This document shows, piece after piece, positions 14,616-64,000 of a stretch of DNA of 64,000 nucleotides. The DNA lies in NCBI RefSeq assembly GCF_003234445.2, contig NZ_CP126269.1, forward strand, positions 2,356,001-2,420,000, in the 5' to 3' direction. The notes under the pieces are model-generated. The model did no database searches. It saw only the letters and a list, made by a program, of their open reading frames with translations, and had not been told where the DNA came from. The position numbers and the translations under genes are program-made. This DNA is from Curtobacterium sp. MCLR17_036 (GTDB lineage: Bacteria > Actinomycetota > Actinomycetes > Actinomycetales > Microbacteriaceae). Within the stretch, counting starts at the first letter, position 1; the number at the start of each line of letters is the position of its first letter.

Positions 14616-15018
14616 GGGGGCGGCGCCGCTGCGGGCCGCGCCCCGCGCCGCCGCGCTGCGCTGTGCGCGCCGGTTGTGCGCCCCATCACGGGCATCGCGC
14701 CCCGACTCTTCGAGGCGCAACGACCGCCAGCGGGCGCGCTGCGGCACGAGCACATGGCGCCCGATGCACCGGAACGCCAGAGCCAGCGCCAGCGCCGCTC
14801 TGATCTCCTCGACGCCCGCGCCGCCCGGGCCCCGTGCGCCCCGTGCGCCCCGTCACGGTCGTTGCGCCCCGACTCTTCGAGGCGCAACGACCGTCAAGGG
14901 GCGCGGTCCGACACAGACGCTCGACAGCCGCGTGTCGGCAGGCGCGCAGCGCGGGCCCGGCCGACTACGCGCGCCCCGCGCCCGCGCGGCCCGCGCCCGC
15001 GCGGCCCGCGCCTCGCGC
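14616..15018. terminator. Intergenic region with long hairpin between convergent RDD gene and ahcY
   Basis: No gene is supported in these 403 bases. The main feature is a two-part hairpin: a 14-bp perfect stem (14855-14868 with 14881-14894, loop of 12) flanked by an outer 7-bp stem (GCGCCCC 14845-14851 with GGGGCGC 14898-14904). A partial copy sharing the loop and right arm lies at 14697-14726. Being between convergent genes, the hairpin may terminate both. GC-only short repeats fill 14975-15010. Confidence 0.6.
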
Positions 15019-27472: not shown

Positions 27473-28774
27473 GTGACGGACGGCCGGGTGGACAGACACG
27501 TGCTCGGGCGCCGCTACCTGTCGGCCTGGATCGGGTTCTCGGCGGGTGGCCGGTTCAGCCAGGCGCTCGCGACCGTCATCGTGCTGTTCGGCTTCGGCCA
27601 GCCCACCGTGCAGGCCCTGGTCGGCCCTGCCGGCACCTGGGCCGTGCTCGTCACGCTGTTCGTGCTCGCCGGGCTGAGCCTGCTCGGGCAGCGCTACCGG
27701 ATCGAGTGGCACGGCGTGCTCCCCCTGTCACTGCTGGCCTTCGTCGGCTACTGCGCGCTGAGCGTGCTCTGGAGCGAGTACTCCTGGGTCGCCCTGCGCG
27801 GCTTCACCGAGACGGTGGGCTTCATCGGACTCGGGCTCTACCTGGCGCTCGGGCGCGACCTGGTGCAGGTGATCCGGGCGTCGGGCGATGCCTTCCGGAT
27901 CCTGCTCGTCACGGCCCTCGGCCTCGAGGTCCTGGCCGGCCTCGTCCTCGACGTCCCCTTCCCCGCCTTCGGCATCCGCGGGGACATCGCCTACGGCGGC
28001 CCGATCCAGGGCATCGGCGGCACCCGCAACTTCATGGGCTTCATCGCCGCGATGGCACTCGTCACCTTCGTCGTCGAGTTCCTCACCCGGTCGGTGACCG
28101 TCTGGCGGGCGATCGGGTCGACCGCACTCGCCGTGATCGCCCTCATGCTCGTGCAGTCCCCCATCACCGGCCTCGCGATGATCGCCCTGGCGATCACGGC
28201 GCTCGCGCTCTGGTCCCTCCGGCACGCCCGCCCGGCGACCCGCCCCGTGGTGAACGGCGTGCTCGGCGCCGCGGTCCTGCTCGCCCTCGTGCTCGCGGTC
28301 CTCGCACGCGGCCGCCTGCTCGCCGAGATCGGCGCCGCCGGCGGCACCGCCACCCGCGTCGACCTGTGGTCGCAGATCCGGGTGTTCGTCGCCCAGTACC
28401 CGATCCAGGGCTGGGGCTGGGTCGGCACCTGGCCGAACGAGGCGGTCGTCCCCTACGTCACCTTCATCGACCCCGCCGGCGCCCGGTTCACCTCGGGCCT
28501 GAACGCCTTCGTCGACGCCTGGCTGCAGATCGGGCTCGCGGGCACGATCATCCTCGCGGTGACGGCCCTGCTCGCGTTCGCCCGGGCCTGGGTGACGGCG
28601 ACGACCTTCCCCGGGGTCGCGTACGTGTGGCCCGCCGCGGTCCTCGTGCTGCTCGCGGTGACGAGCTCGGCCGAGAGCTACCTGCTGCACGGCGCGGGGC
28701 TGATGGTCTTCGTGACGGTGCTCGTGATCGCCGCCCGGCGGCGCTCCTGGCGCCGGCACCTGCCGCGCGTGTAG
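27473..28774 (+). CDS. O-antigen ligase family membrane protein (second copy)
   Basis: A 433-residue relative of the protein at 24633, with about 10 transmembrane segments. Family features are ALSVLWSEYSWVALRGF, GGTRNFMGFI and the Wzy_C-like segment TRVDLWSQIRVFVAQYPIQGWGWVGTWP, then FVDAWLQIGLAGTI. It probably polymerises or attaches a lipid-linked glycan on the outer face of the membrane. The GTG start matches a leaderless arrangement. A 787-base gene-free region full of palindromic repeats follows. Confidence 0.87.
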   Translation: MTDGRVDRHVLGRRYLSAWIGFSAGGRFSQALATVIVLFGFGQPTVQALVGPAGTWAVLVTLFVLAGLSLLGQRYRIEWHGVLPLSLLAFVGYCALSVLWSEYSWVALRGFTETVGFIGLGLYLALGRDLVQVIRASGDAFRILLVTALGLEVLAGLVLDVPFPAFGIRGDIAYGGPIQGIGGTRNFMGFIAAMALVTFVVEFLTRSVTVWRAIGSTALAVIALMLVQSPITGLAMIALAITALALWSLRHARPATRPVVNGVLGAAVLLALVLAVLARGRLLAEIGAAGGTATRVDLWSQIRVFVAQYPIQGWGWVGTWPNEAVVPYVTFIDPAGARFTSGLNAFVDAWLQIGLAGTIILAVTALLAFARAWVTATTFPGVAYVWPAAVLVLLAVTSSAESYLLHGAGLMVFVTVLVIAARRRSWRRHLPRV

Positions 28775-28866
28775 GGCGCGGCGGGCGGGGCGCGGCGCCG
28801 GCGCGGGCGCGGCGCGGGCGCGGGCGCGGGCGCGGGGCTCCTGGCGCGGGGCGCCGGGCGCACATG

Positions 28867-29504
28867 GTGAGCAGAAGATGTCGCCTCCACGTTCCGGACC
28901 CGACCTCTTCTGCTCACTCAGCGATGCGGTGGGCGCCCGCCGCCGGACGGGAGGCCCGTGGCGGCACCGCACCGCACCGCGCCTCCCGTCCGACGCGGCG
29001 TACGTTCCTGGCGCGCACATCGTGAGCAGGAACGGTCGCCTCAACGCACCCCAAGCGACCGTTTCTGCTCACCAAGCGACGCAGTGGGCGCCCGCCGCCG
29101 GACGGGAGGCCCGTGGCGGCACCGCACCGCGCCTCCCGTCCGACCCGACACGCGTACCTGACGCGCACATCGTGAGCAGAAGACGTCGCCTCCGCACATC
29201 GGACCCGACCGTTTCTGCTCACCAAGCGATGCGGTGGGCGCCCGCCGCCGGACGGGAGGCGCGTGGCGGCACCGCGCCGCGCCTCCCGTCCGACCCGACG
29301 TGCGTTCCTGGCGCACACATCGTGAGCAGAAGACGTCGCCTCCGTTCTGCTCACGCAGCGACGCGGTCGCCGCCTGCCGCCGGACGGGAGGCCCGTGGCG
29401 GCAGCACGCCACGCCTCCCGTCCGACGCGACAAGCGCGCCTGACGCGCACATCGTGAGTAGAAGACGTCGCCTCAATGCACCGGACGCGACCGTTCCTGC
29501 TCAC
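28867..29504. repeat. ~150-bp tandem array of 51-bp palindromes
   Basis: Within the gene-free stretch 28775-29561, five copies of a palindrome with arms GTGAGCAG and CTGCTCAC occur at 28867-28917, 29022-29072, 29172-29222, 29322-29354 and 29454-29504. Four are exactly 51 bp; the fourth is 33 bp because 18 central bases are missing. Copies start 155, 150, 150 and 132 bases apart. The ~99-base spacers are also repeated, each holding a hairpin with arms CGGACGGGAGGC and GCCTCCCGTCCG. Protein-coding potential is not convincing. A GCGGGC-type low-complexity run occupies 28797-28850. Confidence 0.85.
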
Positions 29505-29561
29505 CAAGCGACGACGCGCCCGTCCCGCCGCCGGACGGGAAGCGCGACGCGGCTGCGCGCC

Positions 29562-30308
29562 TCAGGGACGGGTGCGTCGCCCGAGGCGGCGCTGCACGCC
29601 CCACTGCGTGACGCGGAGCATCGCCTCGACCACGATCGAGCGGCTCATCTTCGAGACACCGTGCACGCGGTCGCGGAAGCGGATCGGGACCTCGACGATG
29701 CGGCCGCCGAGGTCGTCCACGCGCAGGGTCATGTCGACCTGGAAGCAGTAGCCCTTCGAGTCGATCGAGCCGAGGTCCATCCGGGCGACCGCCGAGGCGC
29801 GGTACACCCGGTACCCCGCGGTGATGTCCCGCACGTCGAGCCCGAGGACCCAGCGCGCGTAGGTGTTCGCGCCGCGGCTGAGCGCCTGACGCCGGAGCGG
29901 CCAGTCGACGACCGAGCCGCCGGGCACCCAGCGGGAGCCGATCGCGAGCAGGACGTCGTCCGAGGCTGTGACCGCGTCGACGAGCGCGGGCAAGCGGTCG
30001 GCCGGGTGCGAGCCGTCCGCGTCCATCTCGACGAGCAGCGGGTAGCCGCGCTCCAGGCCCCAGCGGAACCCGGCGACGTAGGCGGTGCCGAGCCCGAGCT
30101 TGCCGGAGCGCTGCAGCAGGTGCACGCGGTCGTCCTCGGCGGCGATCGCGCGGACGATGTCGCCGGTGCCGTCCGGGCTGCCGTCGTCGACGACCAGGAC
30201 GTGCACCCCGGGCGACGCCGCCAGGACGGCCGACGTGATCGCGCGGACGTTCTCGGCCTCGTCGTACGTCGGGACGATGACGAGCGCCGAGGCGTCGGTC
30301 GGGCTCAC
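29562..30308 (-). CDS. Polyprenol monophosphomannose synthase (DPM1-like GT2)
   Basis: A 248-residue GT2 enzyme that transfers mannose from GDP-mannose to polyprenyl phosphate, giving the donor for extracytoplasmic mannosylation. Motifs are VIVPTYDEAENV, VLVVDDGSPDGTGD, EMDADGSHPADRLPAL (DxD region), SRWVPGGSVVDWPLRRQALSR and DITAGYRVYRASA, all typical of DPM1-like proteins without the extra membrane domain. The GTG start overlaps the upstream gene stop (GTGA). ManA in this window supplies the pathway. The mannose assignment is by family; glucose is a less likely alternative. Confidence 0.9.
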   Translation of the reverse strand: MSPTDASALVIVPTYDEAENVRAITSAVLAASPGVHVLVVDDGSPDGTGDIVRAIAAEDDRVHLLQRSGKLGLGTAYVAGFRWGLERGYPLLVEMDADGSHPADRLPALVDAVTASDDVLLAIGSRWVPGGSVVDWPLRRQALSRGANTYARWVLGLDVRDITAGYRVYRASAVARMDLGSIDSKGYCFQVDMTLRVDDLGGRIVEVPIRFRDRVHGVSKMSRSIVVEAMLRVTQWGVQRRLGRRTRP

Positions 30309-34259: not shown

Positions 34260-34321
34260 CACCCGGCGCTCCGCGCACCCCGGGCGGGCACGGGAGCGGG
34301 TCCGGTGGACGCACCCACGCA

Positions 34322-34367
34322 ACGGACGGGAGGCACGGTGCCAGCTGGCACCGTGCCTCCCGTCCGT
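34322..34367. terminator. 46-bp perfect palindrome, bidirectional terminator
   Basis: A perfect 46-bp inverted repeat with no loop bases lies between the stops of two convergent genes (34259 and 34381). Its outer arms are ACGGACGGGAGGC and GCCTCCCGTCCGT. The same arms recur at several other gene ends in the window. Position argues for bidirectional termination. Confidence 0.75.
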
Positions 34368-34380
34368 CGTCGGTGACCGT

Positions 34381-37290
34381 CTACCGGACGGTGACGGTCT
34401 TCGTGCCGAAGCTCTTGTAGGTCCCGCTCGGCAGGTCCTGGAAGTAGACGCGCACGGTGTGCGTGCCCTTCGCCAGGCCGGTGAGCTTGCGGGAGAGCCC
34501 GACGTCCGAACCCCAGTCCGGGTAGCTGCGCTGAACATCCGTCCGGGTCGCGTTCGCGGTTCCCGGGGCGACCGCGACGCCGTCCAGGTGCATCTTGTAC
34601 TTGACCGGGTCCCAGACGTCCGGGTCGACGGCCCAGCCCTGCACCGTGATCGTGCCGGTGCCGCCGGTCACCGACTCGAAGGCGCCCGTGACCGGCCCGG
34701 TGCCGCCGGTCTTGCCGGTCGACGGCGGGTCGATCACCGTGAAGGTCTTGGTCCCGAAGCTCTTGTACGTGCCGCTCGGCAGGTCCTGGTAGTAGACGCG
34801 CAGGGTGTGCGTGCCGGCGGTCAGGCCCGTGAGGGTCCGGGACAGCCCGACGTCGCTGCCCCAGCCGGGGTACTTCGCCTGCACGTCGGTGCGCTTCGCG
34901 TTCGCGACGCCCGGGTCGATCGCGACCCCGTCCAGGTGCATCTTGACCTTGACCGGGTCCCAGACGTCGGGGTCGATGGCCCACCCCGTGACCGTCGCGC
35001 TGTGCACACCGCCGGTCACCGACTCGTAGGCACCCGTGACGGAGCCGGTCTTGCCGGTCTTGCCCGTGGTGCCGGAGGTCGGCGGGGCGGCCGCGGCGCT
35101 GGTCACCGTGACGGTCTTCGTGCCGGCACTCACCCACTTGCCGCTCGGCAGGTCCTGGAAGTAGACCCGCACCGTGTGCTTGCCCGCCGACAGACCGGTC
35201 AGCTTCACCGACAGCCCGACGTCGGAACCCCAACCGGGGTACTTCGCCTGCACGTCGGTGCGCTTCGCGTTCGCCGTCCCGGTGCCACCGCGGGCACCGT
35301 CGACGTGCAGCAGGTACTGCACCGGGTCCCACACGTCCGGGTCGATCGCCCACCCCGTGACCGTCGCCGTGCCGGCACCGCCGGTCACCGACTCGTAGGT
35401 GCCCTGCACGGTGCCGGTCTTGCCGGTCTTGCCCGTGGTGCCGGAGGACGGCGCGGCGGCCGCGGCACTGGTCACCGTGACGGTCTTCGTGCCGGCACTC
35501 ACCCACTTGCCGCTCGGCAGGTCCTGGAAGTACACCCGCACCGTGTGCTTGCCCGCCGACAGCCCGGTCAGCTTCACCGACAGCCCGACGTCCGAGCCCC
35601 AGTCCGGGTGCTTCGCCTGCACGTCGGTGCGCTTCGCGTTCGCCGTCCCGGTGCCACCACGGGCTCCGTCGACGTGCAGCAGGTACTGCACCGGGTCCCA
35701 CACGTCCGGGTCGATCGCCCACCCCGTGACCGTCGCCGTGCCGACGCCACCGGTCACCGACTCGTAGGTGCCCCGGACCGTGCCGGTCTTGCCGGTCTTG
35801 CCCGTGGTGGGCGGCGTGACCGTGACCGTCTTCGAGGCCACCTTGACGTACCCGGTGCCGGGCTTGTCCATGACGTAGAGCACGACGGTCTGCTTGCCGG
35901 CCGCGATGCCGGTCAGCTTCTTCGACCAGCCGAGGGTGGTGCCGACGCCCGGGTACACCGCTGCGACGTCCTTGCGGGTGGTCGAGGTGGTCCCACCGCC
36001 GCGGTTCGTGCCGTCGACGAGCAGCTTGTAGGTCGCCGGCTTCGTCGAGTCGGGGTCGAGTGCCCACCCGCTCGCCGAGATCGTGCCGGCACCGCCGGTG
36101 ACGCTGTCGATGACGCCCTTCGGCGCCGCACTCGTGATCGTGCGGGTGTAGCAGCCGAGCAGCGTGTTCGACCCGGCGCCCTGGTTGATCGCGTACGTGC
36201 ACACCGAGTGCGCCCCGACCGACAGCCCGGTGAGCTCCGTCGAGAAGCCGTGCGCGGTGTTGCCCGAGCCGAGGGTGTTCGCGAGGTCGGACCGCTTGAC
36301 GTCGGCGGTGACCGTCTTCGCACCCGCGCCGTCGACGTAGAACGCGACGCGCAGTGCCTTGGTGGTGTCCGGGTCGACCGCCCAGCCGGTGACGGTGATC
36401 GACGACGTCGAGCTCGCGGTGACCGCGTCGACGTTGCCGTAGGGGTTGCCCCCGCCGTTCGAGGACCCGAACCAGTCGGTGTACATGCGCCAGAAGTTGC
36501 GGTTGCCGTACGCCGAGCAGCTGTCGCCGGACCCGTACAGGTTCGACATCGCGGCGCTGTTCGGCGTGTACGGCGTGTAGATGTAGAGCCCGGCGGTGGC
36601 CTGGTTCTTGATGTACACGGTCTTCCGGCCGCAGGCGGCGTTCGGGTTGAGCAGGATCGAGTTGTTCCGGCCCGCCTGGTACGCCCACGAGGTCGGCGTG
36701 GCCTGGTACCGCTTGAACTGCAGCCCTGCGGCGTAGACCTGCTGCGCGAAGCCGCGGTACGCCGGGTCGCACGGCGCGGTGTCCGGGCAGGCGAACCCGG
36801 TCGCGTGCTGGTACATCCAGTTCGTCGGCCGCGAGGTCGAGACGATGCCCTGCTCCTTCTCGAGCAGCACGAGGAGCGCCTTCTGGCTGATGCCGCACGC
36901 GGCGCCGACCTGGGCGATGATCGTCGCGGCGGACTTCGTGCCGCCCGCGATCGCGCTGCACCGGCCGGAGACCGCGTTGATGGTGCTGACCTTCTGCGAG
37001 AAGTTCTTGAGGCAGACCGGGCCACCGCTCTGCTGCGTGCAGCTCGGCGCGACGCTGTTCAGGAACGACTGCACGGCGGCGGCGTTCATCGCCGAGCCGT
37101 TGTAGAAGGCGGCGTCGCTGATGATGTTGCCCGGGTCGAACTGCGACGCGACGGCGGCGGAGGCCGGCTCCGTCGTGGTCGCCTCGGAGAGCACGGTGCC
37201 GAAGGTCATGCCGGTCGCGGCCACGGCGAGCGCGGCGACGAGGGCCAGCGCGGATCGGAGTCCCCGGCGGGGAGTACGGGTGGGACGCAT
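34381..37290 (-). CDS. Large secreted repeat protein with lysozyme-like N-terminal domain
   Basis: A 969-residue exported protein. A signal peptide (ALALVAALAVAATGMTFG) is followed by a ~250-residue domain with KALLVLLEKEQGIVSTSRP, CPDTAPCDPAYRGFAQQVY and QFKRYQATPTSWAYQAG, which looks like the lysozyme-like domain of actinobacterial hemagglutinin-type wall proteins (the Glu of KEQG as a possible catalytic residue is inference). Six ~100-residue repeats follow, each with ESVTGG-like opening and GWAxDPD core, the last four joined by TGKTGKTG linkers. The third and fourth repeats are almost identical. The ATG shares one base with the stop of the lipoprotein gene. No LPxTG or membrane anchor is present. 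Confidence 0.87.
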   Translation of the reverse strand: MRPTRTPRRGLRSALALVAALAVAATGMTFGTVLSEATTTEPASAAVASQFDPGNIISDAAFYNGSAMNAAAVQSFLNSVAPSCTQQSGGPVCLKNFSQKVSTINAVSGRCSAIAGGTKSAATIIAQVGAACGISQKALLVLLEKEQGIVSTSRPTNWMYQHATGFACPDTAPCDPAYRGFAQQVYAAGLQFKRYQATPTSWAYQAGRNNSILLNPNAACGRKTVYIKNQATAGLYIYTPYTPNSAAMSNLYGSGDSCSAYGNRNFWRMYTDWFGSSNGGGNPYGNVDAVTASSTSSITVTGWAVDPDTTKALRVAFYVDGAGAKTVTADVKRSDLANTLGSGNTAHGFSTELTGLSVGAHSVCTYAINQGAGSNTLLGCYTRTITSAAPKGVIDSVTGGAGTISASGWALDPDSTKPATYKLLVDGTNRGGGTTSTTRKDVAAVYPGVGTTLGWSKKLTGIAAGKQTVVLYVMDKPGTGYVKVASKTVTVTPPTTGKTGKTGTVRGTYESVTGGVGTATVTGWAIDPDVWDPVQYLLHVDGARGGTGTANAKRTDVQAKHPDWGSDVGLSVKLTGLSAGKHTVRVYFQDLPSGKWVSAGTKTVTVTSAAAAAPSSGTTGKTGKTGTVQGTYESVTGGAGTATVTGWAIDPDVWDPVQYLLHVDGARGGTGTANAKRTDVQAKYPGWGSDVGLSVKLTGLSAGKHTVRVYFQDLPSGKWVSAGTKTVTVTSAAAAPPTSGTTGKTGKTGSVTGAYESVTGGVHSATVTGWAIDPDVWDPVKVKMHLDGVAIDPGVANAKRTDVQAKYPGWGSDVGLSRTLTGLTAGTHTLRVYYQDLPSGTYKSFGTKTFTVIDPPSTGKTGGTGPVTGAFESVTGGTGTITVQGWAVDPDVWDPVKYKMHLDGVAVAPGTANATRTDVQRSYPDWGSDVGLSRKLTGLAKGTHTVRVYFQDLPSGTYKSFGTKTVTVR

Positions 37291-43435: not shown

Positions 43436-43499
43436 CCGCACAACCGAAGTGCGTCCGAACCGCGCGGTTGCGCGGCGCGAATGCACTTTGGTTGTGCGC
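43436..43499. terminator. Imperfect inverted repeat between convergent genes
   Basis: Arms near 43436-43454 and 43481-43499 pair over 19 positions (GCACAACC core, G-T wobbles inside) with a ~26-base loop. The element lies in the 195-base gap between the stops of the GT2 and the minus-strand gene at 43576, so a bidirectional terminator or REP-like element is likely. No gene is seen in the gap. Confidence 0.55.
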
Positions 43500-57658: not shown

Positions 57659-57802
57659 GCGGCCCATTCTCCCGCACCGCCGCGCACGACCGGCACGCCG
57701 ACCAGGAACCCGCACCGGCCCGGCGGCGCCGCGGAGACCTGCGGGCCCGCGCACGCGCGGCTCAGCGCACCCGCACCGCCCCGGCGGCGCCGTGCGGCCC
57801 CG

Positions 57803-57866
57803 CGGCTCAGCGGCTCAGCGGCTCAGCGGCTCAGCGGCTCAGCGGCTCAGCGGCTCAGCGGCTCAG
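57803..57866. repeat. 8-bp tandem repeat, eight copies
   Basis: CGGCTCAG repeated eight times without error (64 bases), beginning inside the GH6 stop region and running downstream. On the minus strand every unit reads CTGAGCCG, and the first contains the GH6 stop. A single CGGCTCAG followed by the same CGCACCCG context also occurs near 57758. Confidence 0.9.
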
Positions 57867-59845
57867 CGCACCCGTACCGTGCTGCACCCGAGCGCGGTGT
57901 CCCCGCCGCGGCCGATGCCGACGGCGGTCAGGCACACCGAGCGCTTGCCGGCCGCCACGCGGACCGACCCCGCGAAGCCGTGCCGTGCGCCGCTGCTGTG
58001 CACGCGGTCGACGTCGCTCCGCGTGCGGTCGGCCACCAGGGTGCCGACGGACCGGCCGCCGACGGTGACCCGCACGGAGACGGACCGCCCGAGGGCGTCG
58101 CGGTCGAAGGCCCAGCCCCGGACCGAGACCCGGCCGGCGGTACCGGCCGTCACGGACTCGCGCTTGCCGACCGGGGCGGCGACGGGCACCGTCACCGTCC
58201 GGCACGGGCCGACGGACCGGTCGGCGCCCGCTCCGGTGTTCCGCGCGACGGCGCACACGCGGTGCTTCCCCGCGCCGACGGGCACCGTGCCGCTGAACCC
58301 GTGGGCCGCGCCCGATCCCCACGTCCGCTGCACGTCGGCGCGGGTGACCCCGGCGGACAGCGAGCGGACCGTCCTGCCGTCGACGGTCACCGCCACGGTC
58401 GTCGCCGACTCGACGGCGTCGCCGTCGAAGGCCCACCCGGTCACCGCGATGCCGGCCGCCGCCACCCGCGCGGACTCGAGCGCGCCGTAGGGGTCGTGTC
58501 GGTAGGCCCGCGCCGTGGCGCAGCCGAGCGCGGTGTCGTCCCCGGCGCCGATCGAGACCGCCGTGACGCAGACGCGGCGCGGACCGGCCGCCGCGGGCAC
58601 CACGACGTCGAACCCGTGGGACCGGCCGACCCCTGCGGAAGCGTCGACGTCGGACCGGTCGGCGTCGGCGGCGATGCTGCCGGCCGCGGCCCCGTCGACC
58701 GTCGCGCGGACCCGGACGGGCTGCGTCGGGTCGTCCTCGTCGTACGCCCAGCCGCGCACGCGCACGCCGCCGCCCGATCCGGCCACGAGTTCGAGGGAGC
58801 CGCGCGGCGACATCTGCGGGGTGGCCGCGCCGAGTCGGGCGTTCGCGACGAGGGACTGCGCGTACGTCGACCACCACTTCCCCGCGGCCGGTCCGCCGTT
58901 GCAGGTGCCGTCGCTCGCACCCGGGGTCTTCACCCAGAGCAGGGCGTCGAGCGCGGTGCCGTCCGCGACGACCCGCGGCGTGGTGCCGAGTCCGGCGCCG
59001 GGTGGGTTGCACCAGGTGCCCCGCCAGCCCTGCCCGTTCCGCGAGGTGTCGATGACGTAGTGCGAGCCCCCGGTCGCCGCGGAGACCTTCTGCGCGTAGG
59101 CCTCTTCCTGGGCGGTCGGGTAGAAGTTCGCGACGTTGGTGAAGAACCCGCGCGCCTGCCGCACGCCCGCACTGTCCAGGCGGGCGGCCATCGTCGCCGG
59201 CTGGACCCAGTTCGAGTTGCCGGCGTCCAGGTAGGCGGGCACCCCGGCGGCGGTCAGCCCGGCGACCGTGCGGGACAGGATCCGGTAGCGCTGCTGGTCG
59301 AGGGCCTGGTCGCACGCGGCGTTGCTGAGCATGGCGAGCGAGTCCGGCTCGACGATCACCGCGACACGGTGTCCGGCGACGGCGGCCGTGACCTGGTCGA
59401 CCCACGCGTCGTAGGACGCCTCGTCGAACCCACCGGCGGAGTACCCGCCGCAGTCCCGGTCCGGGATCGCGTACAGCACGAACACCGCGGTGGTGCCGGA
59501 CTGCTCGGCCCCGCTGACGGCGGTGTCGATCGTCTTCCGCAGCACCGTGCCCTGCGCCCACTCGCCGAGCCAGGTCGCCACCGGGTAGCGGGCGATCGTC
59601 GACGCGGCCGAGGCACCGGCCGCGTCGGACCCGGCGAGCGCGGTCGCGGCCTTGGCGGCCTCGCTCGTCGGGGAACGGTACGGCCCGGCTCCGTACAGCG
59701 ACGCGGCGGTCGCGGAACGGATGTCGGTCGCGGACGTCGCGGACGTCGCGGCGGACGCGGTGGTCGTCGGCAGCAGCGCCCCGACGACGGCGGTGAGCGC
59801 CACGGCGGCGGCGCAGACGACGGCACGGCGCGGACGGCGGTGCAT
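57863..59845 (-). CDS. Secreted glycoside hydrolase family 6 (cellulase-type) protein with three C-terminal repeats
   Basis: A 660-residue exported enzyme. Signal peptide residues 1-32 (ending TTTASA). The GH6 domain (~40-375) has YAIPDRDCGG with Asp131 and VIVEPDSLAML with Asp168 as the probable catalytic acid, plus YLDAGNSNW and ALLWVKTPGASDGTC. GH6 enzymes cut beta-1,4-glucan with inversion. Residues ~380-660 are three ~95-residue repeats (GWAYDEDD, GWAFDGDA, GWAFDRDA) related to repeats of the secreted protein at 34381. The ATG follows GAGGAG. Plant cell wall degradation is the likely role. Confidence 0.94.
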   Translation of the reverse strand: MHRRPRRAVVCAAAVALTAVVGALLPTTTASAATSATSATDIRSATAASLYGAGPYRSPTSEAAKAATALAGSDAAGASAASTIARYPVATWLGEWAQGTVLRKTIDTAVSGAEQSGTTAVFVLYAIPDRDCGGYSAGGFDEASYDAWVDQVTAAVAGHRVAVIVEPDSLAMLSNAACDQALDQQRYRILSRTVAGLTAAGVPAYLDAGNSNWVQPATMAARLDSAGVRQARGFFTNVANFYPTAQEEAYAQKVSAATGGSHYVIDTSRNGQGWRGTWCNPPGAGLGTTPRVVADGTALDALLWVKTPGASDGTCNGGPAAGKWWSTYAQSLVANARLGAATPQMSPRGSLELVAGSGGGVRVRGWAYDEDDPTQPVRVRATVDGAAAGSIAADADRSDVDASAGVGRSHGFDVVVPAAAGPRRVCVTAVSIGAGDDTALGCATARAYRHDPYGALESARVAAAGIAVTGWAFDGDAVESATTVAVTVDGRTVRSLSAGVTRADVQRTWGSGAAHGFSGTVPVGAGKHRVCAVARNTGAGADRSVGPCRTVTVPVAAPVGKRESVTAGTAGRVSVRGWAFDRDALGRSVSVRVTVGGRSVGTLVADRTRSDVDRVHSSGARHGFAGSVRVAAGKRSVCLTAVGIGRGGDTALGCSTVRVR

Positions 59846-59990
59846 GGACACACTCCTCGGACGGTCGACCCCTGACCGGTCCATGGGAACACGCGGTCGG
59901 CGGCGTCACCACCCGCCAGAGCGGGTGCCACCCGAGGGGGTGTCGGCACTCCTGGGGACCGTCCCGGACGTCCGGGTCGCGACCCCGTGA

Positions 59991-60035
59991 CGGACGGGAG
60001 GCCCGTGGCGGCGCCCGCCACGGGCCTCCCGTCCG
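59991..60035 (-). terminator. Hairpin after purK
   Basis: A 21-bp perfect stem (59991-60011 with 60015-60035) and 3-base loop between the purK stop and the GH6 start. The arms CGGACGGGAGGC and GCCTCCCGTCCG are those of the dispersed hairpin family. There is no T-tract. Confidence 0.7.
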
Positions 60036-60062
60036 GTCCCCGTCACGTCGACGGGCCGCCGC

Positions 60063-61870: not shown

Positions 61871-63456
61871 GTGACGGCCCCCACGACCACCACCGGCTCC
61901 CCCACCACCGACTCCCCCGCCGCGCCGCCCCCCGCGCCGCCCGGTGGGAGCGCATCGCCATCGCCGTCGTCACCGCGACCTTCGGCCTCTGGCTCGTCGC
62001 GTGGGCACTCGTCGTCCCGGTGTTCGAGGCACCGGACGAGACCGCGCACATCGACGCCGCGGTGCACGTGGCACTCGGCGGCGAGTGGGTCGACCCGGGC
62101 GCGCTGCAGGTCTCGAACGCCGTGCAGGCCGCCAAGGCCGAGCAGGCGACGAAGCCGGCCGACCAGTGGTCCACCGTGAGCGGCCTGCTGCAGGGCGCAC
62201 CGGGGCCGTCGGCGACGGTCAACCAGATGACCCAGCACCCGCCGACCGCGTACCTCGCCGGCGGACTGGTCCTGCGGGCCGTCGACTACGGCGACCTGCG
62301 CTGGGACCACGCGTTCCTGGCGCTCCGCCTCGCCGACGCCCTCGCCGTGACGGCCCTGCCGCTGCTGGTGTGGGCGTCCGTCCGCCGGGTGACCCGCTCG
62401 CCGCGGGCCGCGCTGGTCGGTGCGCTCGCGCTGTTCGCGACGCCGGAGCTCGCGTCCATCGGCTCGTCGGTGTCGAACGACGCCCCCGTGCTGCTCGTCG
62501 CGGGTGTCGTCGCCTGGCTGGCGACGCGCCTGCTCACCGGCGACACCCGCTGGCGGACGACGATCGCGTTGGCCGTGGCCCTCGGTGCGCTCGTCTGGAT
62601 CAAGGGCACCGGTCTGCCGGCGGTCCCCTTCGTCGCCGTGGTCGTGCTGTTCGCCGGCGCCGGGGTGCTGTCCCTGCGGCGACGGGTGGTCCGCACCGTG
62701 GTCGCGATGGCGGTCTCCGGCGGGATCGGCGCGTGGTGGTGGGTCCACAACTGGTTCGCCTACGGCCGCGTGCAGCCGAACGGGTACACCGCGATGCGGC
62801 CCCCGAAGGACTTCCCGCCGGGTGAGCACCCGACCCTCGGGCACTTCCTCGACGTGTCGTGGGGCACCCTCGCCCGCACGTTCTGGGGCAGCTTCGGCGG
62901 CCGGGCGCAGGTGAGCATGGGCGACCTGCTGACCGCCGTCCTCACGCTCGTCGCGCTCGTCGTCCTGGTCGGCTGGGCGTTCCGCCGCGGCCCGCAGCTC
63001 CGGATCGCGCTCTGCCTGGCGGTGTTCCCGGCGCTCCTGATCGGCATCCAGAACCGCACGAGCGCCCACTCGTACCTGACCACCACCGAGGTCGCCGCCA
63101 CGCAGGGTCGCTACTACTTCCCCGCGATCGTCTGCCTCGTCGTGCTGAGTGCCCTCGCCTGGCGACGACTCGTGCCGGCCGGCCGTGCGCGGTCCTGGGC
63201 CGCCGTCGCTCTGGCCGTGCTGCTCCCCGCGGTCGGCGTCTACGGCTTCGCGGTGGCCTCCGCCTGGTTCTGGAACGCCGCGCTGTTCCCGGTCACCGGC
63301 CGCGGGCTCCTGCGGTACTCCGAGCTCGGCCCGGTGCCGCCCGCCGTGCTCGCCGTCGTGGTGGTCCTCGTCGCGGCCGGCCTGGTGGCGTCGGTCGTGC
63401 GGGTCGCCCGCGCGGGCCGTCGTGGTGCGGTCGACGCCCCGGTCGCGGCTCGCTGA
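61871..63456 (+). CDS. DUF2142 family membrane protein with apparent N-terminal frameshift
   Basis: A polytopic protein paralogous to those at 47879 and 49441 (VFEAPDETAHIDAAVHVALGGEW; MTQHPPTAYLAGG; TQGRYYFPAIVCLVVLSALAWRRL), ~11 helices. The conserved frame is open from 61861 but has no ATG, GTG or TTG until 62020, inside the conserved loop after helix 1. The natural start, GTG 61871 with a -10 box, is in another frame and would encode a Thr/Pro-rich N-terminus like that of the paralogue. One added base, for example in the six-C run at 61928-61933, would join them. Either a sequence error, a real mutation or slippage; function as for DUF2142. Confidence 0.8.
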
Positions 63457-63487: not shown

Positions 63488-63938
63488 GTGAGCAGGAGAT
63501 GTCGGGTCCGCCGCCCCGACCCGACCTCTTCTGCTCACTGAGCGGGAGCGCTGGCGCCACATCGCGGGTGCGTTGCCCGCTGCGTCGCGACGGCACTCGG
63601 TGAGCAGAAGATGTCGAGTCCGCCGCCCCGACCCGACATCTTCTGCTCATGAACGGGAGCACGGGGCATCAGGCCGCCGGTGCGTTGCCCGCTCCGCCGA
63701 CATGACGACACCCGGGAGCGCGGTGCGCGAGCGCCGATGCGTTGCCTGCTGCGTCGACGTGACGACGTCCGGTGAGCAGAAGATGTCGAGTCCGCCACCC
63801 CGACTCGACCTTTTCTACTCACTGAACGGGAGCGCCGGGCATCAGGCCGCCGGTGCGTTGCCCGCTCCGCCGACGTGACGACATTCAGTGAGCAGAAGAT
63901 GTCGAGTCCGTTACCCGGACTCGACCTTTTCTGCTCAC
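63488..63938. repeat. Cluster of four 51-bp palindromes (second locus)
   Basis: The 544-base gene-free end of the window holds four copies of the palindrome with arms GTGAGCAG and CTGCTCAC: 63488-63538, 63600-63650, 63772-63822 and 63888-63938, each 51 bases (the third has CTACTCAC, the second ends CTCAT). Spacers are 61, 121 and 65 bases, share a GAACGGGAGCG and TGCGTTGCC motif with one another, and are unlike the spacers of the array at 28.9 kb. No protein-coding gene is supported. Confidence 0.85.
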
Positions 63939-64000
63939 TGAACGGGAGCGCGGGGCGTCAGGCCCGCGGGCGCGCTGCCCATCGCATCGCCGCGACAGCG

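What the first reader, a model, noticed from the sequence alone, without database searches (positions are those of the whole stretch)
28867..29504. Tandem array of 51-bp palindromes with ~150-bp period
Five copies of a GTGAGCAG/CTGCTCAC palindrome are spaced 155, 150, 150 and 132 bases apart. The short fourth copy lacks exactly the 18 bases by which the last interval is reduced, so the array arose by unit duplication followed by a deletion in the palindrome. Each repeated spacer carries a second strong hairpin. Nothing in the array looks protein-coding. It could be a REP/BIME-like element, a structured RNA, a protein-binding array or a transcription barrier between a ligase gene and a convergent mannose-transferase gene.
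Basis: seen in the sequence. Interest (0 to 1): 0.75.

Follow-up and report, generated by a model that had tools for sequence, protein, structure and literature searches.

The report
Curtobacterium palindrome repeats between converging genes
Five copies of a short DNA hairpin sit in a row between two genes that point at each other; the same hairpin is scattered about a hundred times through this Curtobacterium genome, mostly just after the ends of genes, where it may help to stop transcription, and the enzyme known to spread such repeats elsewhere was not found.

Summary
The array is real and as described: five copies of a 51-nt palindrome (A; copy 4 lacks 18 nt) alternate with a second palindrome (B, 42 nt). 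A has 107/105 exact half-sites in this 3.6 Mb genome (backwards control 0/0). It matches in 31 of 36 genus genomes tested (8 of them with at most 7 rows); B matches in 36 of 36. Outside the genus both are nearly absent. Of 58 A sites examined here, 36 lie between convergent genes, 18 tandem, 4 divergent, 0 inside genes; 26 sites in relatives repeat the bias. Stems are very stable, lack a U-tract, and A's arms co-vary. The REP transposase family (Y1_Tnp/RAYT) was not found in 40 genus genomes; GTAG/CGTC tags and target duplications were not found. All 13 A sites seen in stretches of five relatives coincide with A sites here. Best reading: a REP/REPIN-like palindrome family without RAYT, tandemly multiplied, mostly inherited and lost, acting as a two-way terminator-like barrier at gene ends. 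Function and the spreading agent are inferred; one test for RNA-level selection was negative. Novelty: a variant of a known kind.

The parts
28867..28917 (.). element A copy 1 (51-nt palindrome)
28945..28991 (.). element B copy 1 (47 nt, 5 nt longer)
29022..29072 (.). element A copy 2
29100..29141 (.). element B copy 2 (42-nt palindrome GGACGGGAGGC..GCCTCCCGTCC)
29172..29222 (.). element A copy 3
29250..29291 (.). element B copy 3
29322..29354 (.). element A copy 4, 33 nt (18 nt missing from centre and right arm)
29382..29423 (.). element B copy 4
29454..29504 (.). element A copy 5
29524..29564 (.). degenerate element B (80% to copy 1 over 41 nt) reaching the stop codon of the right-hand gene
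   Evidence: family D2
27473..28774 (+). left convergent gene; 'ligase' not confirmed by Pfam
29562..30308 (-). right convergent gene, family-2 glycosyltransferase (PF00535); the label polyprenol-phosphate mannosyltransferase (Ppm1)-like is recalled
63488..63538 (.). second A array of the window, copy 1 (no B in it)
63600..63650 (.). second A array, copy 2
63772..63822 (.). second A array, copy 3
63888..63938 (.). second A array, copy 4 (copy 5 lies just beyond the window)
34324..34365 (.). stand-alone element B between convergent genes (model span 34316-34373)
59984..60042 (.). stand-alone element B between tandem genes (model span)

Best explanation
Element A (and its partner B) belongs to a REP/REPIN-like family of dispersed, non-coding palindromes of the genus Curtobacterium. 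SHOWN: high copy number, extragenic, mostly 3' of genes and mostly between convergent genes, two arms at nearly fixed spacing, genus-restricted in the genomes tested, patchy between species, tandem arrays of locus-specific units. The array of the finding consists of repeated A+B units; relatives have A-B-A at the same place, so local tandem duplication is the simplest history. INFERRED: in both directions of transcription the 20-27 bp stem forms a very stable hairpin just after the stop codons and acts as a U-tract-less (I-shaped) terminator or 3'-end barrier, so that one element serves both converging genes. INFERRED: the family was spread in the past by a copying process that is not a Y1/RAYT transposase, and is now mostly inherited, lost, tandemly multiplied and homogenised.
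For: Exact half-sites 107 and 105, backwards control 0 and 0; 184 of 188 exact half-sites in the held own DNA lie inside listed A palindromes. 104 intact A copies plus the truncated one form 58 clusters in the stretches used: 36 convergent, 18 tandem, 4 divergent, 0 intragenic, against 18 of 150 convergent among element-free gaps of 60 bp or more (p about 1e-12). In tandem gaps A is nearer the upstream stop in 17 of 18. One site from each of 26 relatives: 18 convergent, 6 tandem, 1 divergent, 1 intragenic; background 4 of 43 convergent. Mean MFE -42.6 (A) and -37.9 (B), no U-tract. Arm co-variation in 40 single copies: identity 0.84 against at most 0.77 in 2000 shuffles. The slot 3' of the glycosyltransferase gene carries A, B, A+B or an unrelated palindrome in different species. 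B in 36 of 36 genus genomes. Orthologous arrays of different length. U-lacking structured transcript ends in Streptomyces and I-shaped terminators within 50 bp of stops in mycobacteria are described in PMC8269248 and PMC12288462 (passages read).
Against: No transcription data. The excess of G.U over A.C pairs is much the same in convergent copies (58:31) as in tandem copies oriented with transcription (21:9), so it gives no sign of RNA-level selection. B shows no significant co-variation, and in the own A alignment the number of pairs changed on both sides is not above shuffles (160 of 500 as high). Terminators need no shared sequence, so function alone does not explain about 100 alike copies. 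At two own-only sites, and at the glycosyltransferase slot in several species, relatives do without A or B. [quoted passage not shown] 4 of 58 A clusters sit between divergent genes.
Confidence: 0.6

Rival explanations
1. Purely selfish or inert repeats: A spreads or once spread without host function, and is found at gene ends only because insertions in genes and promoters are removed by selection.
For: Patchy copy number: on a one-gene tree the A-rich state needs 6 changes (5 forced; label by model rows, 28 species) or 4 changes (3 forced; label by exact half-site, 30 species). 0 intragenic and few divergent sites. Unrelated palindromes occupy the same slots in other species. Species can do without A or B at a given slot. 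No RNA-level signal in the G.U test.
Against: Position is not only outside promoters but close to stops: 17 of 18 tandem sites nearer the upstream stop, and convergent gaps are over-used about 12-fold in odds; A is kept at the same places in species whose DNA is about 85% identical.
Confidence: 0.27
2. Array of binding sites for a dimeric DNA-binding protein (nucleoid, gyrase or segregation protein); the 51-nt dyad is two half-sites.
For: Nearly fixed spacing with variable loop; nearly invariant blocks TGAGCAG and GTCG in each arm; in G016, G027 and G030 the outer pair T-A is G-C in every copy listed (19, 16, 8) while exact T-A half-sites number 0/0, 0/0 and 0/1, as if tracking a trans-acting factor.
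Against: Position at gene 3' ends and between convergent genes has no obvious link to such a protein; some species have no A match; partner positions co-vary in the least conserved block, which a contact-only model would not need.
Confidence: 0.12
3. MITE: remnants of a DNA transposon mobilised in trans by a transposase other than Y1.
For: Dispersed, short, inverted-repeat, no coding capacity.
Against: No target duplication in 40 single copies (112 tests, lowest p 0.003); genes in nine intervals between neighbouring A sites look ordinary (by inspection); no match of one A copy on plasmids or phages; all 13 A sites found in stretches of five relatives coincide with own sites.
Confidence: 0.08

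Closest known systems
REP sequences / REPINs and BIMEs with RAYT (TnpA-REP, Y1 HUH) transposases
   Same: Short extragenic palindromes, about 100 copies, inverted doublet of a conserved word with spacer, tandem clusters with flanking sequence repeated, mosaics of two palindrome types, species-specific populations.
   Different: No Y1_Tnp match in 40 of 40 genus genomes; no GTAG tag and no consistent CGTC tag; strong bias to convergent gaps.
CGTC-tagged REPs (PMC3733652, passages read)
   Same: Its abstract says they apparently lack a dedicated transposase.
   Different: A has no consistent CGTC tag; the main text does not contain the words Actinobacteria or Curtobacterium.
I-shaped (U-less) intrinsic terminators and bidirectional terminators of high-GC bacteria
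   Same: GC-rich stable stem near the stop codon, no U-tract, shared by convergent genes.
   Different: In the passages read they are not described as a repeated sequence family; termination was not measured here.
Inverted pairs of DNA uptake sequences used as terminators (Neisseria, Haemophilus; recalled)
   Same: Repeated word in inverted pairs 3' of genes.
   Different: 184 of 188 exact A half-sites in the held own DNA lie in palindromes, so single words are rare; for B this is open.

Membership tests
REP/REPIN/BIME (RAYT-linked) | Short palindromic, extragenic, high copy number | tested here: met
   58 clusters, 0 of 58 inside genes; half-site 107/105, control 0/0
REP/REPIN/BIME (RAYT-linked) | Two inverted conserved words separated by a spacer (doublet) | tested here: met
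   184 of 188 exact half-sites in the held own DNA are in palindromes; with 30-62 nt allowed nearly every clear copy is 51 nt, exceptions 33 nt (copy 4) and 50 nt at 3499464
REP/REPIN/BIME (RAYT-linked) | Cognate Y1 tyrosine transposase (RAYT) in the genome | tested here: not met
   PF01797: own genome none, 0 of 40 genus genomes at E 0.001; 5 of 14 control genomes ring
REP/REPIN/BIME (RAYT-linked) | GTAG or CGTC tetranucleotide tag at one end | tested here: not met
   GTAG/CTAC within 12 nt of the core in 0 of 40 single copies; CGTC in 3 and 4, GACG in 2 and 3 of 40 on the two sides
REP/REPIN/BIME (RAYT-linked) | Mosaic or tandem clusters | tested here: met
   18 of 58 clusters hold 2-5 A copies; 20 of 58 have a B within 300 nt, though many stretches were picked with a query that holds both
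REP/REPIN/BIME (RAYT-linked) | Evidence of transposition or excision | tested here: inconclusive
   13 of 13 relatives' A sites coincide with own sites; 2 own sites lack A in the relatives compared, gain or loss unresolved
MITE | Target-site duplication | tested here: not met
MITE | Related autonomous transposon | tested here: inconclusive
   only Y1_Tnp was searched by family; genes between close A sites show none by inspection
I-shaped intrinsic terminator | Stable stem near the stop codon without U-tract | tested here: met
   median 58 nt (A) and 41 nt (B) from stop in convergent gaps; at most 4 T (A) or 5 T (B) in any 8 nt of the 20 nt beyond the core
I-shaped intrinsic terminator | Measured termination | not testable with these tools
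Known Rfam RNA family | Match at the gathering score | tested here: not met
   (28600-29800 only)

The most novel reading that the evidence does not exclude
Element A is a population of sequence-specific, two-way transcription barriers recognised or copied by an unknown non-Y1 factor of Curtobacterium: both arms of dispersed copies switch together between species (outer pair T-A to G-C in all listed variant copies of G016, G027 and G030 and in 10 of 13 in G017), as expected if the arms track a coevolving trans-acting protein or are rewritten by a dedicated copying process.
Probability: 0.2. Interest if true: 0.78.

Novelty: new variant of a known kind. Interest (0 to 1): 0.5.

Why it matters
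REP-like repeats are usually explained by a resident RAYT transposase. A genus in which no tested genome shows that family, yet 16 of 40 genomes carry at least 12 exact A half-sites on each strand (up to 107 here) and all 36 tested carry B, is a clean system to ask what else can spread or maintain such palindromes. The placement between convergent genes makes the terminator hypothesis directly testable, and the paired-arm changes between species make it possible to separate selection on pairing from template-switch correction.

Tried and rejected
Assembly artefact: rejected, shorter orthologous arrays in other assemblies. Coding sequence: rejected by a codon model, although mechanical ORFs cross the array. 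Rfam RNA: nothing above gathering. Plasmid or phage origin: one A copy finds no match in two collections. RAYT: no match. A gene bounded by A copies (REPtron-like): nine intervals of 0.4-3.5 kb hold genes that look ordinary (by inspection of the translations, no family search). Target duplication: none. DNA-uptake-word reading of A: unlikely, 184 of 188 exact half-sites in the held DNA are in palindromes. RNA-strand selection by G.U versus A.C: no signal. Co-variation of B: not significant. One search used a wrong gap length and returned nothing; it is not used. Literature: no report of such repeats in Curtobacterium or Microbacteriaceae was seen in the listings (no paper); most subscription journals are not in that library. 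Searches were for terminators and quasipalindromes.

Limits. The gene caller is my own codon model, not checked against an annotation. Own stretches were chosen around elements: 62 fetched, 61 used (L055 was left out; L171 covers most of it), 0.47 Mb distinct with the window, so the background junctions come from the same neighbourhoods, and about a tenth more A copies exist than were placed (held DNA has 96 and 92 of the 107 and 105 half-sites). The copy finder allowed 49-52 nt; it missed a 50-nt A at 3499464, whose neighbour B was therefore counted as B-only. Searches with the A model were capped (150 rows own, 85 per relative). The A-rich label depends on the measure (see rival 1). The 24 rows of the cross-species alignment (of 30 loci, L056-L085) are best hits of a model that rewards pairing, so their co-variation is biased upwards; left out were L073, L074, L076, L083, L084 and L085 (off-register, not 71 nt, or weak). 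In the context count I used 26 of those 30 loci (without own L056, and without L073, L083 and L085); several of the 26 are weak hits. In one search, 28 of the 30 fetched orthologues were used (G061 and G062 had no A-model count). One search's pattern favours the G-C type, so a T-A copy shows only if the rest is perfect. One search was a recount made for this report; it changed 105 copies to 104 intact plus one truncated, and showed one relative's site that one search had skipped (checked).

Full report
What is there. Between two convergent genes (27473-28774 +, 29562-30308 -) the window holds five copies of a palindrome A at 28867, 29022, 29172, 29322 and 29454, alternating with a second palindrome B. 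Copy 4 of A is 33 nt long, 18 nt short of the standard 51; the next interval is shorter by the same 18 nt. The exact pattern was found in none of 100 shuffles of the window. A second A array without B begins at 63488 and runs past the end of the window.

Both elements are genome-wide. A BLAST of the array against the window's own genome (one contig of 3.635 Mb) gave 118 matches. The exact half-site TGAGCAGNANNNGTCG occurs 107 times forward and 105 times reverse; the backwards control gives 0 and 0. With one mismatch the counts are 132 and 136, control 20 and 28. In 61 own stretches plus the window (0.47 Mb), 104 intact A copies and the truncated copy 4 form 58 clusters, 40 single and 18 arrays of 2 to 5 copies with periods of 91-226 nt (one 282-nt step spans copy 4) and locus-specific spacers. 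184 of 188 exact half-sites in this DNA lie inside such palindromes. One well-formed A copy found no match on plasmids or phages.

Where they sit. Of 58 A clusters, 36 lie between convergent genes, 18 between tandem genes, 4 between divergent genes, 0 inside genes; of 150 element-free gaps of 60 bp or more in the same stretches, 18 are convergent, 73 tandem, 59 divergent. Fisher p is about 1e-12 for convergent enrichment and about 1e-6 for divergent depletion. In tandem gaps A is nearer the upstream stop in 17 of 18 cases; B in 20 of 26. B-only clusters: 26 tandem, 11 convergent (one of them beside a 50-nt A that the finder missed), 1 divergent, 7 called inside genes by a permissive match, 2 undetermined. 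One A-model site from each of 26 other genus genomes: 18 convergent, 6 tandem, 1 divergent, 1 intragenic, against 4 convergent of 43 other junctions in the same loci.

Structure. The stems average -42.6 kcal/mol (A) and -37.9 (B), without a U-tract on either side. Symmetry reaches about 6 nt beyond the 51-nt core. The 6-mer next to the outer block comes in two main types (AAGxxG and GAAxGG); arms match more often than chance: in 40 single copies identity is 0.84 against at most 0.77 in 2000 shuffles, in array copies 0.77 against at most 0.74, and with one copy per cluster the median Fisher p is 5.5e-4. In the array of the finding the arms are partly of different types, so pairing is imperfect there. 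For the 48-row own alignment the covariation score is 0.160 against 0.113 in shuffles (0 of 500 as high), while the number of pairs changed on both sides is not special (160 of 500 as high). B shows no significant excess. Across 24 genomes 20 of 27 pairs have two-sided changes and 92% of cells pair, but these rows are best model hits and so biased towards pairing. G.U pairs exceed A.C pairs in much the same ratio whether copies are convergent (58:31) or tandem and oriented with transcription (21:9), so this test does not show RNA-level selection.

Relatives. A named orthologue search places the window in Curtobacterium: the closest named hit is C. flaccumfaciens LMG 3645, 92% protein identity (records very near the window may be left out there). 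A has a model match in 31 of 36 genus genomes, 8 of them with only 1-7 rows, and in 1 of 23 genomes outside the genus, weakly. B matches in 36 of 36 and, outside, in 3 of 23 with one to three weak matches. By the exact half-site, 16 of 40 genus genomes have at least 12 on each strand, 9 have one to four (control values reach 4), 15 have none. On a one-gene tree the A-rich state needs 6 changes, 5 forced by well-supported branches, if richness is read from the model rows (28 species, cut-off 40 rows), or 4 changes, 3 forced, if read from the exact half-site (30 species). The difference comes from a variant: in G016, G027, G017 and G030 the outer pair T-A is G-C. One search lists 19, 16, 13 and 8 copies there, G-C on both sides in all of G016, G027 and G030 and in 10 of 13 in G017 (2 mixed, 1 T-A), and 2 each in G013 and G015.

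The place of the finding in other species. At the 3' end of the same glycosyltransferase gene, C. flaccumfaciens LMG 3645, G003, G005 and G012 have A-B-A; G033, G034, G026 and G029 have one A (the first three also a weak B); G001, G008, G009, G018, G022, G031 and G061 have a B; G002 and G006 have an unrelated palindrome (GGTTCCGAGATCT..), which G012 has beside its A-B-A; several species have none. That unrelated palindrome is itself repeated: 12-23 hits per strand in G002, G006 and G012, a few in four other genomes, none here.

Mobility. Six own A sites could be compared with orthologous gaps in up to five relatives; a seventh had no orthologue in the stretches. The nearest pair, G006 and G012, is 94.7% identical over this region. 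All 13 A sites found in the relatives' stretches coincide with own sites (12, one skipped there and checked); part of those stretches had been chosen around own sites. Two own sites (2336472, a five-copy array, and 2612054) have no A in the relatives compared (four and one). Because this genome is about equally far from all of them, gain here and loss there are equally short explanations. G006 and G012 each miss one site that the other has, both present in more distant species, hence losses. At the gene end near 2597765 the stem differs between species by matched changes in both arms (CAATGG/CCATTG here and in G033, AAAAGG/CCTTTT in G006, AAGACG/CGTCTT in G012). Such block-wise paired change fits strong selection on pairing, or template-switch correction of quasipalindromes (described in PMC7202029 and PMC8604942; only the abstracts in the listing were seen), or replacement by another copy. 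I cannot separate these.

Mechanism. The best-supported account is a REP/REPIN-like palindrome population with tandem multiplication, sitting at gene ends and acting in both directions as a U-less terminator-like barrier. High-GC relatives offer a precedent: structured U-lacking transcript ends in Streptomyces clavuligerus (PMC8269248) and I-shaped terminators within 50 bp of stops in mycobacteria (PMC12288462); passages only were read. The REPIN paper (PMC3116915, passages) describes inverted doublets and tandem clusters with repeated flanks, which match the anatomy here, but ties them to RAYTs. That defining enzyme gave no match in 40 of 40 genomes, so I do not file A as a RAYT-linked REPIN; it looks and evolves like one.

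Verdict. Real, genome-wide, genus-restricted in the genomes tested, not an artefact. It is a variant of a known kind of repeat; the unknown spreading agent and the convergent-gene placement are what make it worth following.

Noticed in passing
63488-64000 (continues beyond the window): Second tandem A array with a different spacer and no B, 3' of a gene ending at 63456; relatives G005, G006 and G033 have one A plus one B there.
   Followed up: partly
14697-14718 and 14864-14885; 43438-43497: Further palindromes between convergent genes, of other sequence: GCGCCCCGACTCTTCGAGGCGC twice, and GCACAACC..GGTTGTGC. Possibly more families of the same sort.
   Followed up: no
7004, 12476, 40604, 41169, 44746, 45300, 53060 and others: The B-arm word CGGGAGGCCC is over-represented (13 against 0.33 expected by an order-3 model), also as single copies outside clear B palindromes, as an uptake-type word would be.
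   Followed up: no
L207, L209, L214 (G032, G009, G061), 3' of the glycosyltransferase gene: These species carry quite different palindromic or repeated words in the same gap (for example CGCTCGTGG, GCGTACCTGG and GTGCGAGG types); not counted over their genomes.
   Followed up: no
34391-35804: About four 369-bp tandem repeats (TRF score 1482) inside the gene called at 34381-37290.
   Followed up: no
57794-57868: 9.4 copies of the 8-bp unit GCGGCTCA, 97% matches.
   Followed up: no
28774-28861: GC-rich 6- to 17-bp repeats (GCGGGC type) directly before the array.
   Followed up: no
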